From assembly GCF_000196175.1 (NCBI RefSeq), contig NC_005363.1, positions 3,658,001 to 3,722,000 of the forward strand: DNA of 64,000 nt, written 5' to 3'. The DNA is from Bdellovibrio bacteriovorus HD100. GTDB taxonomy: Bacteria; Bdellovibrionota; Bdellovibrionia; Bdellovibrionales; Bdellovibrionaceae. The notes beneath the pieces were generated by a model. It saw only the letters and a program-made list of their open reading frames with translations, searched no databases and had not been told where the DNA came from. The position numbers and the translations under genes are program-made. This document shows positions 12,617 to 55,858 of the stretch, in pieces; position 1 is the stretch's first letter, and each line of letters opens with the position of its first letter.

Positions 12617-12748
12617 ATGGCAAAGAAAGCAGCTAAAAAAGCTACAAAAAAAGCAGTTAAAAAAACTACTAAAAAAGTAGCAAAAAAAGCTACAAAAAAA
12701 GTAGCTAAGAAAGCTACTAAAAAAGCTACTAAGAAAGCTGCGAAGTAG
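12617..12748 (+). CDS. Histone H1-like Lys/Ala/Thr-repeat small basic protein
   Basis: 43 codons with a strong ribosome binding site (TAGGAGGAG) just upstream and a good terminator downstream. After Met-Ala the protein is an almost perfect run of four-residue units of the form Lys-Lys-X-X, where X is Ala, Thr or Val: about half of all residues are Lys, and there are no acidic, aromatic or Cys residues. This is the composition of eukaryotic histone H1 tails and of bacterial H1-like proteins (chlamydial HctA/HctB, Bordetella BpH1, AlgP tails). The likely role is nucleic-acid binding and nucleoid compaction, possibly in the non-growing attack phase (inference). The repeat could vary in length by slippage. 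Confidence 0.82.
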   Translation: MAKKAAKKATKKAVKKTTKKVAKKATKKVAKKATKKATKKAAK

Positions 12749-52823: not shown

Positions 52824-53852
52824 TTACTGATCACCCTTGCCAACATAAGGATCTTTCAATCCCATGTCTTTGCCTTCTCTCCACAGGTTTTCCAGATTGT
52901 ATTCCTGGCGAACGAAGTCGTAGAAGACGTGGATGATCAAAGAACCGTAGTCGACCAGAACCCAGCGGCCCTCGTCCACACCCTCGATGCTTTGCGGGTG
53001 CACGTTGTATTCCTCTTTCACGGCCATCACGATGTTTTCTGCCATCGCCGCCGCATGACGGGTGGAAGTACCGGAAGCGATCAGAGTGTATTCACTGGGT
53101 GCCGACATCTGAGTCAGGTCGAAACCACGAACGTTGATGCCTTTTTTCGCAAACAGAACATTGGCGCAGAATTCAGTGAACTTGGTATAGTCACCGATAC
53201 GGTCGCCCAGATTGCGGTAAAGTTTGTTTTCCTTGATATAGGATTCAACAGACAACGGCAGGTATTTTTCCACCGGTTTGCCGGAACGAAGCCATTTACG
53301 AACTTCGCTGGAGGAAACTTCCACATCACGCAAAGTGATGAACTGGATGTTGCGGCCGGTGTTCAGCTCAATAAAGTTGAAATCAAATTCCGCCACCAAA
53401 GGCTTCAGGAATCCCGGCATCTCTTCCAAGGATTCCGGCATGTCGTAACCCGGGCGGGTTGTGACAATCAGATTCGCCTCAGTCAGGATCTTTTGATAGT
53501 CCTTCCACTGAGCCAGCTCCTCAAACTTGTCAGCACCCACGACCAGATACAGGTCGTTGGCATCGTAGGATTTGCGCAGATTCATCACGGTATCAATCGT
53601 GTAGCTCATGCCACCGCGTTTGATTTCCTGATCGTCCACGAAGTAAGTTTCACCGTACTGGGCAAATGCCAGACGAGTCAGCTCCACACGCTGTTCAGGC
53701 GTTGGACCTTCCACCGGGGTTTTCAGAGGATTCTGAGCCGCAGGAATGATGTGAACTTTGCCCAAGCCGGCTTTTTTCGCCACGGTTTGAATGGCGTTGA
53801 TGTGACCCATGTGTGGAGGGTTGAAACTGCCTCCGAAAATACCTATTTTCAT
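52824..53852 (-). CDS. nadD: NadD-RsfS fusion: nicotinate mononucleotide adenylyltransferase and ribosome silencing factor
   Basis: 342 residues. Residues 1-200 are NadD: GIFGGSFNPPHMGH nucleotidyl-transfer site, LVVGADKFEELAQW, and SSSEVRKWLRSGKPV. Residues 225-335 are RsfS/Iojap: YTLIASGTSTRHAAAMAENI and WVLVDYGSLIIHVFYDFVRQ. The genes are neighbours in many bacteria, but here one reading frame joins them without a stop or frameshift. NadD makes deamido-NAD; RsfS blocks subunit joining through L14. Its ATG overlaps the obgE stop. Confidence 0.93.
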   Translation of the reverse strand: MKIGIFGGSFNPPHMGHINAIQTVAKKAGLGKVHIIPAAQNPLKTPVEGPTPEQRVELTRLAFAQYGETYFVDDQEIKRGGMSYTIDTVMNLRKSYDANDLYLVVGADKFEELAQWKDYQKILTEANLIVTTRPGYDMPESLEEMPGFLKPLVAEFDFNFIELNTGRNIQFITLRDVEVSSSEVRKWLRSGKPVEKYLPLSVESYIKENKLYRNLGDRIGDYTKFTEFCANVLFAKKGINVRGFDLTQMSAPSEYTLIASGTSTRHAAAMAENIVMAVKEEYNVHPQSIEGVDEGRWVLVDYGSLIIHVFYDFVRQEYNLENLWREGKDMGLKDPYVGKGDQ

Positions 53853-54883
53853 TATTCTTCTTCCTCTTTCAAGATCTGACGAGCCAGTTCCTGAACAAAT
53901 TCTTTGATGTTTTTGCCAGTCACCGCAGAAATCGCAAACGGCTCACTGCCGCTGGCTTCTTTGAACTGCTTTTTCAGCTTCGTCAGCTGAGATTCACTCA
54001 AGGTGTCGATTTTGTTCAAAACAACCAACTGCGGACGCGTGGATAGAGGGAAGAAACCCTCTTTGTCCTGGTTGTTTTCATCGTACATCTTAAGTTCGTT
54101 ATTAATATCCGTATAATCCTCTAAAGGATCACGACCTGACATTCCGGATGCATCAACCAGATGGATGAACAGACGTGTCCGCTCAATGTGTTTCAAGAAC
54201 TGAATGCCCAGACCCACACCCGCGTGTGCGCCTTTCACCAGTCCCGGAATATCCGCAACCACGAACGAGGAATAATCCCCGGCCTTCACAACTCCCAGAT
54301 TCGGAGTCAGGGTTGTAAACGGATAATCCGCAATTTTTGGTCGTGCTGCAGAGATGCGCGAGATCAAAGTGGACTTACCCGCGTTCGGGAATCCAACGAT
54401 ACCCACATCCGCAATCAGTTTTAGTTCCAGACGAACTTCAATTTCCTGACCTTCTTCGCCGGGTTGCGCGTGCTCAGGAGCCTGATTCACACTGTTTTTG
54501 AAAAATTCATTTCCTTTTCCGCCACGACCGCCTTTAAGCAGGGTGTGTTCGGAAATTCCGGTCATATCGATGATGATTTCACCATCCATGTTACGGAATA
54601 CAGTGCCCTGAGGAACAATAAGGATCAGGTCTTCGCCATCCATGCCGGACTTCTGACGACCCTCACCCATCCTTCCGGATTGAGCGGCGTATCTTTTATT
54701 TTGTCTAATATCTACAAGAGAATTGATATGACGTGAGGTGCGGATGATAACATCACCGCCCTTACCACCGTTGCCCCCGTCTGGGCCGCCACGGGCTTGC
54801 ATAGACTCGCGGCGAAAACTGACACAACCCGGGCCGCCACGTCCCGAAGCTAAAGAGATACTGACTTCATCGATGAATTTCAT
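53852..54883 (-). CDS. obgE: Obg family ribosome-assembly GTPase
   Basis: 343 residues. Glycine-rich Obg domain (GRGGPGCVSFRRE, GPDGGNGGKGGDV) to about 158, then the GTPase with GFPNAGKSTLI, DIPGLVKGAH and NKID. It helps 50S assembly and the stringent response. The start is ATG 54883 (MKFIDEV); 11 upstream codons overlap the terminator and are rejected. Confidence 0.97.
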   Translation of the reverse strand: MKFIDEVSISLASGRGGPGCVSFRRESMQARGGPDGGNGGKGGDVIIRTSRHINSLVDIRQNKRYAAQSGRMGEGRQKSGMDGEDLILIVPQGTVFRNMDGEIIIDMTGISEHTLLKGGRGGKGNEFFKNSVNQAPEHAQPGEEGQEIEVRLELKLIADVGIVGFPNAGKSTLISRISAARPKIADYPFTTLTPNLGVVKAGDYSSFVVADIPGLVKGAHAGVGLGIQFLKHIERTRLFIHLVDASGMSGRDPLEDYTDINNELKMYDENNQDKEGFFPLSTRPQLVVLNKIDTLSESQLTKLKKQFKEASGSEPFAISAVTGKNIKEFVQELARQILKEEEE

Positions 54884-54970: not shown

Positions 54971-55231
54971 TTAAACAGCTTTAGGATAAACGCTAACTTT
55001 GAAACGCTCTTTGGAGAAACGCTCAAATTTAACAAGACCTTCAACTACAGAATAGATAGTGTAGTCGCGACCCATTTTTACGTTGTTACCCAAGTGGAAC
55101 TTAGTGCCACGTTGACGAACGATGATAGTTCCTGGAAGAACTTTCTCGCCACCAAATCTTTTTACACCCAGTCGTTTACTCTGTGAATCACGACCGTTCT
55201 TTGTACTACCACCGGCCTTCTTACTTGCCAT
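54971..55231 (-). CDS. rpmA: 50S ribosomal protein L27
   Basis: 86 residues. [16 protein letters not shown] and [14 protein letters not shown] are the family signatures, and the length is standard. It is the second gene after rplU, 29 bases away; AGAGAGG precedes its start. Confidence 0.98.
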
Positions 55232-55260: not shown

Positions 55261-55824
55261 TTAAGCTTTCTTAGAAGTTTTTTTAGCTGCTTTTTTCTTC
55301 GCGCCAGTTTTAGTCGCTTTTTTCACAGTCTTTTTAACTGCTTTTTTCGCAACTTTTTTCTTCGCTACTTTTTTAGCTGCTTTTTTAACAACTTCTGCAG
55401 GACCTTTGTTCGCTGCGCGCTCTTTACGAGCTGCCACGCGAGCTTGTGCTTTTTCAGCACGAACTGCTTTCACGTCAACAACAGTTGCTGCTTCATCAGA
55501 TTTAGCAGTTTTTCCATCGAAGGAAATTGCTTTCACAAATAGTTCGGTGAACTCTTGTTTGTGAGTTGCGAACTTTCTGTAACCTTGACGACGCTTCTTT
55601 TTGAAGACGATCTCTTTTCTTGTCTTAGCTTGTTTAGTAACAACAACAGTTACTTTCGCACCTTTAACAAGAGGTTGACCAACAGCAGTGGACTCACCAC
55701 CAACCATCAAAACTTCGTTGATTTCAAACTCTGCACCAAGTGCTTGTTCAAGTTTATCAACCTGAACTACGTCACCAGCTTGAACTTTATATTGTTTCCC
55801 GCCAGTACGAATAATCGCGTACAT
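55261..55824 (-). CDS. rplU: 50S ribosomal protein L21 with a long histone H1-like tail
   Basis: 187 residues. Residues 1-103 are L21 (MYAIIRTGGKQYKVQAGD, then KKKRRQGYRKFATHKQEFTE). Residues about 104-187 are a tail of Lys, Ala, Val and Thr, in part repeats such as KKVAKK, KKAVKK and KKTVKK, that L21 elsewhere lacks. This resembles the small H1-like protein at 12617. GGAGG lies before ATG 55824; the earlier start at 55875 is rejected. The tail may bind RNA or DNA. Confidence 0.95.
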   Translation of the reverse strand: MYAIIRTGGKQYKVQAGDVVQVDKLEQALGAEFEINEVLMVGGESTAVGQPLVKGAKVTVVVTKQAKTRKEIVFKKKRRQGYRKFATHKQEFTELFVKAISFDGKTAKSDEAATVVDVKAVRAEKAQARVAARKERAANKGPAEVVKKAAKKVAKKKVAKKAVKKTVKKATKTGAKKKAAKKTSKKA

Positions 55825-55858
55825 GTAATACCTCCAGCTACCCGAATTAAGCCAATGG

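What the first reader, a model, noticed from the sequence alone, without database searches (positions are those of the whole stretch)
55261..55513. Histone-like tail on ribosomal protein L21
L21 is normally about 103 residues. Here an extension of about 80 residues, ending in KKxx-type repeats like those of the small H1-like protein at 12617, is added in frame with no frameshift. The same low-complexity motif in a ribosomal protein and a free basic peptide suggests shared origin or shared nucleic-acid binding.
Basis: partly seen in the sequence, partly recalled or inferred. Interest (0 to 1): 0.6.

Follow-up and report, generated by a model that had tools for sequence, protein, structure and literature searches.

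The report
Lysine-rich tail on ribosomal protein L21
In Bdellovibrio and nearly all sampled members of its order, ribosomal protein L21 carries an extra 70-110 residues (a small hairpin, a helix and a floppy lysine/alanine tail), which evolution preserves as carefully as the rest of the protein, so the tail is very probably a real working part of their ribosomes, though its similarity to the nearby free basic peptide is probably convergence.

Summary
L21 (rplU, minus strand, 55261-55824) has 187 residues; the Pfam L21 domain ends at residue 100. AlphaFold2 gives the extension three parts: a hairpin (about 101-110), a confident helix (118-139), and a disordered +20 Lys/Ala tail (144-187). A relative from another family of the order models the same way. 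The extension (>=60 aa) is in 15/15 genus, 12/12 other family and 21/26 other order genomes sampled; four order members lack the Lys tail, so it can be lost. Within the genus the tail is as constrained as the L21 core; the linker is far looser. Its DNA avoids runs of seven or more A, unlike control genes. So the tail is very probably translated and kept, most likely as a ribosome-anchored polycation for RNA (mechanism inferred). 'Shared origin' with the 12617 peptide is not supported: shared words are no longer than codon-shuffled controls, and the peptide varies in repeat number and does not avoid A runs. 'Shared nucleic-acid binding' is plausible but untested. Disordered ribosomal-protein extensions are common in bacteria, and H1-like ones are known in mosquitoes. 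This is a new clade-wide variant of a known kind, of moderate interest.

The parts
55261..55824 (-). rplU, ribosomal protein bL21, 187 aa plus stop, the only L21 gene in the genome
   Evidence: PF00829 113 bits; SD GGAGG at 55831-55835
55525..55824 (-). canonical L21 core, residues 1-100 (beta barrel)
   Evidence: Pfam 1-100; AF2 pLDDT block means 88-96; Foldseek best hits are bL21 of Listeria, Enterococcus and Bacillus ribosomes
55474..55524 (-). extension part 1, residues 101-117: beta-hairpin lengthening the last core strand (E91-102 / E105-108), then a loop; Gly104 invariant in 51/51, Asp117 in 43/51
   Evidence: AF2; column counts
55408..55473 (-). extension part 2, residues 118-139: confident alpha-helix; Arg122 25/25 and Arg136 24/25 in the family
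   Evidence: AF2 H118-139, pLDDT block means 83-90; same helix in a distant order member (H119-138); column counts
55264..55395 (-). extension part 3, residues 144-187: disordered Lys/Ala tail, net charge +20, 4-residue KKxx rhythm
   Evidence: AF2 pLDDT 37-48; composition and periodicity; constraint equal to the core
54971..55231 (-). rpmA, ribosomal protein L27, next gene downstream (usual rplU-rpmA-obg order)
53852..54883 (-). obg/cgtA GTPase, third gene of the usual cluster (start taken at MKFIDEV)
   Evidence: sequence

Best explanation
Bdellovibrionales ribosomes carry a clade-specific C-terminal extension of bL21. A short hairpin and a conserved helix (residues 101-139) fold next to the L21 core on the solvent side of the 50S subunit and hold out a disordered +20 Lys/Ala tail. 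The tail most likely acts as a ribosome-anchored polycation that binds RNA, such as neighbouring 23S rRNA during 50S assembly or RNA of adjacent ribosomes in the crowded predator cell. Shown: the extension exists, is clade-wide, has this predicted three-part anatomy, is under purifying selection as strong as the core within the genus, and its coding DNA avoids homopolymer runs that would cause slippage. Inferred: that it is on the ribosome in full length, and what it binds.
For: 187-aa frame with PF00829 at residues 1-100. Survey: extension >=60 aa in 15/15 genus, 12/12 other family and 21/26 other order genomes; >=4 KK pairs in 22/26. AF2 for this L21: hairpin, helix 118-139 at pLDDT ~90, disorder 144-187. 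Same anatomy for a 59%-identical L21 from another family of the order. Invariant Gly104 and near-invariant Asp117 outside the canonical domain. Second-position over four-fold divergence within the genus: core 0.078, linker 0.358, tail 0.083. A7+ runs in the extension: genus 21 vs 51.6 expected, family 19 vs 29.8, order 37 vs 64.4, 0 of 300 shuffles as low in each; 28 of 34 family and order genomes below their own expectation; 85 control genes 29 vs 32.1. Literature: bL21 lies on the surface of the large subunit (PMC5071890) with neighbours bL20, uL13 and uL15 (PMC4881015); most M. pneumoniae r-protein extensions are predicted disordered, such extensions are common in bacteria, and disrupting them affects fitness or survival in M. 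pneumoniae (PMC9534751).
Against: No biochemical, proteomic or structural data for this L21 were available, so cleavage or non-ribosomal use is not excluded. Four members of the order (loci L132-L135) have L21 of 102-133 aa without the Lys tail, with L27 directly behind, so the tail is dispensable over evolution. Beyond the genus, composition and length are kept rather than sequence, so the constraint may be on charge only. AF2 modelled a lone chain, so docking of the helix on the ribosome is not shown.
Confidence: 0.55

Rival explanations
1. Ribosome-nucleoid tether: the H1-like tail binds chromosomal DNA (or polyphosphate) and positions ribosomes against the compact Bdellovibrio nucleoid, as AlgP and PhaF tails are thought to tether granules.
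For: Composition resembles H1 C-terminal tails. KPAA-repeat peptides of AlgP bind DNA, and removing that tail disturbs polyP granule spacing (PMC9239181). Bdellovibrio chromatin carries abundant histones (PMC10627809).
Against: A cationic tail on the 50S has abundant rRNA and mRNA nearby. No histone or HC1/HC2 family match. The passages read on the attack-phase nucleoid fraction name Bd0055 as its most abundant protein and do not mention L21; supplementary tables were not read.
Confidence: 0.15
2. Nearly neutral low-complexity tail: Lys/Ala codons expand easily and a basic tail is tolerated on an RNA-bound protein; it has no specific job.
For: Similar tails arise in unrelated lineages: Woeseia and Chromatiales MAGs, Clostridiales Family XIII, Flavobacterium. 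It is missing in four order members.
Against: Within the genus the tail is as constrained as the core (0.083 vs 0.078). Length stays 83-90 residues after the core. The DNA avoids A7+ runs while control genes and the free peptide do not.
Confidence: 0.2
3. Extra-ribosomal L21: the tail serves a free pool of L21, for example in mRNA binding or autoregulation of rplU-rpmA.
For: r-proteins often moonlight (general knowledge; a review, PMC10931766, was listed but not read here).
Against: No structured leader matched any Rfam family near rplU; nothing positive points to it.
Confidence: 0.05
4. Shared origin with the free 43-aa peptide at 12617 (one arose from the other by duplication).
For: Both encode KKAVKKT-type repeats and share a 17-nt word.
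Against: 33% of synonymous shuffles share a word at least as long, and the local score is at the mean of shuffles. They evolve differently: the peptide varies in repeat number and tolerates A runs.
Confidence: 0.05

Closest known systems
Disordered r-protein extensions of Mycoplasma pneumoniae and other bacteria (Xue et al. 2022, PMC9534751)
   Same: C-terminal extension of >20 aa relative to E. coli, mostly predicted disordered, function unknown
   Different: The passages read name S6, L22 and L29 as the structured extensions of M. pneumoniae, and the M. pneumoniae L21 chain in the PDB (7ood) is only 100 residues. Here L21 carries a clade-wide hairpin-helix-polycation
Histone H1-like Lys-rich extensions of mosquito RpS6 and RpL23a (Hernandez and Fallon 1999, 2007; cited in PMC11764897)
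   Same: Lys-rich H1-like low-complexity C-terminal extension on a ribosomal protein, arising independently
   Different: Eukaryotic, other ribosomal proteins; no homology tested or expected
Flavobacterium johnsoniae bL21 (PDB 7JIL chain R, 147 aa)
   Same: bL21 with a Lys/Ala/Glu C-terminal tail in a solved ribosome; the structure library holds 104 of its 147 residues, so its tail appears unmodelled
   Different: Shorter, acidic-basic mixed tail; independent by sequence as far as seen
NCBIfam NF008916 / PRK12278 extended 50S L21
   Same: L21 with a long C-terminal extension (model length 223); E 1.2e-32, residues 1-152
   Different: 113.5 bits against a cut-off of 193; no helix-hairpin-helix domain in the Bdellovibrio L21, unlike the extended Rhodobacterales L21 seen here
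AlgP / PhaF C-terminal KPAA tails of Pseudomonas (PMC9239181)
   Same: Disordered Lys/Ala repeat tail of H1-like composition
   Different: KPAA with proline versus KKxx without; not ribosomal

Membership tests
Ribosomal protein bL21 (PF00829) | Pfam profile match above the gathering score | tested here: met
   113.2 bits vs 27, residues 1-100
Ribosomal protein bL21 (PF00829) | single copy, rplU-rpmA-obg neighbourhood | tested here: met
   one match in the genome; L27 and Obg follow on the same strand
Ribosomal protein bL21 (PF00829) | usual length about 100-105 aa (typical, not a condition of membership) | tested here: not met
   187 aa
Bacterial disordered r-protein extensions (PMC9534751 definition: >20 aa beyond the E. 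coli terminus) | C-terminal extension >20 aa | tested here: met
   84-87 extra residues
Bacterial disordered r-protein extensions (PMC9534751 definition: >20 aa beyond the E. coli terminus) | predicted disordered | tested here: met
   pLDDT <50 for 144-187; 118-139 is helical
Histone H1-like bacterial proteins (HC1/HC2, AlgP) | Pfam HC1/HC2 or linker-histone match | tested here: not met
   no such match at E<=1 for L21 or the 43-aa peptide
Histone H1-like bacterial proteins (HC1/HC2, AlgP) | Lys/Ala-rich, disordered, highly basic tail | tested here: met
   net charge +20 over 44 aa, KKxx rhythm, disorder
Histone H1-like bacterial proteins (HC1/HC2, AlgP) | binds DNA in cells | not testable with these tools
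   needs biochemistry
Extended L21 NF008916/PRK12278 | score above curated cut-off 193 bits | tested here: not met
   113.5 bits
Extended L21 with helix-hairpin-helix domain (as in Rhodobacterales here) | C-terminal helix-hairpin-helix domain | tested here: not met
   no HHH match in P0001, HHH_5 E 3.3e-6 in a Rhodobacterales L21 tail

The most novel reading that the evidence does not exclude
bL21 of Bdellovibrionales is a ribosome-borne H1-like arm: the hairpin-helix docks on the 50S and the tail physically links ribosomes to each other or to the nucleoid, organising translation in a predator with a highly compact cell.
Probability: 0.12. Interest if true: 0.7.

Novelty: new variant of a known kind. 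Interest (0 to 1): 0.35.

Why it matters
Ribosomal-protein extensions are common in bacteria but their functions are largely unknown. Here one is clade-wide, has a predicted folded base plus a disordered tail, is constrained as tightly as the ribosomal core, and sits in a genetically tractable predator. A 44-codon truncation would directly test whether a disordered polycation on a ribosome does anything. The avoidance of A7+ runs in the tail-coding DNA is an independent sign that the full-length tail matters. It also warns against reading shared Lys/Ala composition as shared ancestry.

Tried and rejected
1. Shared DNA ancestry with the 12617 peptide: not supported on codon-shuffle control. 2. 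First dN/dS count (NG86) put the tail below the core (0.053 vs 0.099). Lys codons inflate synonymous counts under a transition bias, so it was redone with second-position and four-fold sites, giving parity rather than excess constraint. 3. Avoidance of ribosomal slippery heptamers (A_AAA_AAR) first looked frame-specific, but off-phase A7 runs are avoided as well and six-A runs are not. So it is homopolymer avoidance in general: DNA-polymerase, RNA-polymerase or ribosome slippage cannot be told apart. 4. An apparent in-frame L21-L27 fusion in genus member G069 (L007): rejected as a probable assembly artefact. A 17-nt Nextera mosaic-end sequence (identified from memory), flanked by a repeat of the surrounding obg sequence, lies about 290 bp downstream of the junction. 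It is the only copy in that genome and absent from the two others tested, and G069 has no intact L27. 5. RNA leader families near rplU: none in Rfam. 6. A survey centred on another phylum was not possible, so statements outside Bdellovibrionota rest on a biased sample. 8. Papers: no text combining 'ribosomal protein L21', 'C-terminal extension' and 'lysine-rich' was found in the held library.

Full report
WHAT IS THERE. The gene is rplU on the minus strand, 55261-55824, starting ATG behind a GGAGG Shine-Dalgarno sequence and encoding 187 residues. L27 and Obg follow, the usual cluster. PF00829 covers residues 1-100. The host genome is 3,782,950 bp in one contig, which matches B. bacteriovorus HD100 in size (from memory). 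The nearest named relatives returned were Pseudobdellovibrio and Bdellovibrionales records.

ANATOMY. With an alignment of 51 clade members, AlphaFold2 gives the core barrel at high confidence, a hairpin that lengthens the last core strand (E91-102, E105-108), a confident helix 118-139, and a disordered stretch 144-187 with pLDDT 37-48. A second run on an L21 from a different family of the order (59% identical) gives the same order of elements: hairpin, helix 119-138, disorder 146-191. Gly104 is invariant in 51 of 51 and Asp117 in 43 of 51; Arg122 and Arg136 are nearly invariant in the family. The top Foldseek hits are ribosomal bL21 chains, aligned over about 100-120 columns, so none models the whole extension.

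DISTRIBUTION. A 192-genome search of the phylum found L21 in 186. From the loci fetched, extensions of >=60 residues are present in 15 of 15 genus members (G069 set aside), 12 of 12 others of the family and 21 of 26 others of the order. Outside the order, 13 of 56 have >=60 residues and 13 of 56 have at least four KK pairs; many of those have a short 22-residue extension. The sample outside the order is the better-scoring part, so these fractions are not unbiased. Four order members (L132-L135) have L21 of 102-133 residues with L27 directly behind and no long Lys-rich stretch left in any frame, so the tail has been lost or never gained there. Lys/Ala tails without the Bdellovibrionales hairpin motif also occur on L21 of Woeseia and Chromatiales MAGs and a Clostridiales Family XIII MAG, and a mixed one in Flavobacterium, which points to repeated independent gain.

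IS IT SELECTED. Within 14 genus members, second-position divergence over four-fold-site divergence is 0.078 in the core, 0.358 in the linker (101-143) and 0.083 in the tail (144-187). The bootstrap interval for tail minus core spans zero. This measure avoids the bias that Lys codons bring to simple dN/dS counts. Independently, the coding DNA of the extension has fewer runs of seven or more A than synonymous shuffles of the same codons: 21 vs 51.6 in the genus, 19 vs 29.8 in the rest of the family, 37 vs 64.4 in the rest of the order. Taken genome by genome, 28 of 34 non-genus genomes lie below their own expectation; 85 control genes of this genome show 29 vs 32.1. Both slippery-phase and off-phase A7 runs are avoided, and six-A runs are not, so the avoided hazard is slippage in general. 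Genus sequences are related and not independent; the family and order sets are more so.

RELATION TO THE 12617 PEPTIDE. That gene has its own SD and a terminator-like stem and is found in 20 of 22 good-quality genus genomes. Its longest word in common with the L21 tail (17 nt) is matched or exceeded by 33% of shuffles, and the local alignment score is average. Its orthologues range from 28 to 44 residues and do not avoid A7+ runs (31 vs 28.7). Common ancestry is not supported; common composition is plain. Other Lys/Ala tails in this genome are on L17 (181 aa), a GroES-like protein and a protein with a weak TfoX-N match.

MECHANISM. bL21 lies on the surface of the large subunit (PMC5071890), with bL20, uL13 and uL15 as protein neighbours (PMC4881015). 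In Flavobacterium ribosomes the bL21 chain is 147 residues but 104 are in the structure library, as expected of a flexible tail. The best-supported reading is a docked hairpin-helix that holds a flexible polycation on the 50S, acting on RNA by charge: rRNA packing or assembly, or contact with adjacent ribosomes. That the tail is made and kept is well supported by the evolutionary data; what it touches is inference. DNA tethering, by analogy to AlgP (PMC9239181), is possible and untested.

PLACE AMONG KNOWN THINGS. Bacterial r-protein extensions are common and mostly disordered in M. pneumoniae, with fitness effects when disrupted there (PMC9534751). H1-like r-protein tails are known from mosquitoes (cited in PMC11764897). 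An extended L21 is known to NCBIfam, but this L21 falls below that model's cut-off. I found no description of the Bdellovibrionales L21 arm in the held library, which misses most subscription papers. Verdict: real, ordinary in kind, a well-defined new variant, worth a simple truncation experiment.

Noticed in passing
L205 (own genome G000:C1 near 3261200, minus strand; outside the window): A GroES/Cpn10 protein (PF00166, 97 bits, residues 124-217) carries an N-terminal Lys/Ala/Pro tail of about 120 residues with a weak HC2 histone-like match (E 2.8e-5, below cut-off): a co-chaperonin with an H1-like tail.
   Followed up: partly
L007 (genome G069), 1501-2133 and 2287-2303: Apparent L21-L27 in-frame fusion with loss of the L27 N-terminus; a nearby Nextera mosaic-end 17-mer with duplicated flanks inside obg suggests a mis-assembly in a genome rated complete.
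   Followed up: yes
L162 (G147) and L189 (G067); Rhodobacterales loci such as L067: L21 carries a C-terminal helix-hairpin-helix domain after an Ala/Lys linker in two Bdellovibrionota outside the order and in many Rhodobacterales (HHH_5 E 4.1e-5, just below cut-off, and 3.3e-6).
   Followed up: partly
L244 (own genome S10-spc region), L17 gene: L17 has 181 residues with a roughly 60-residue Lys/Ala-rich C-terminal extension, the only strongly Lys-rich tail among the ribosomal proteins of that region.
   Followed up: partly
window 12617-12748 (+): The 43-aa KKxx peptide is a conserved Bdellovibrio gene with its own SD and terminator-like stem; repeat number varies among species and it tolerates A7+ runs, unlike the L21 tail.
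   Followed up: partly
L193 (own genome G000:C1 near 12900, plus strand): A protein with a weak TfoX-N match (E 0.03) ends in a Lys-rich KKxx tail.
   Followed up: no
L194 (own genome G000:C1:1693948-1694004): A long (AAG/CTT)n microsatellite that reads as poly-Glu in one open frame.
   Followed up: no
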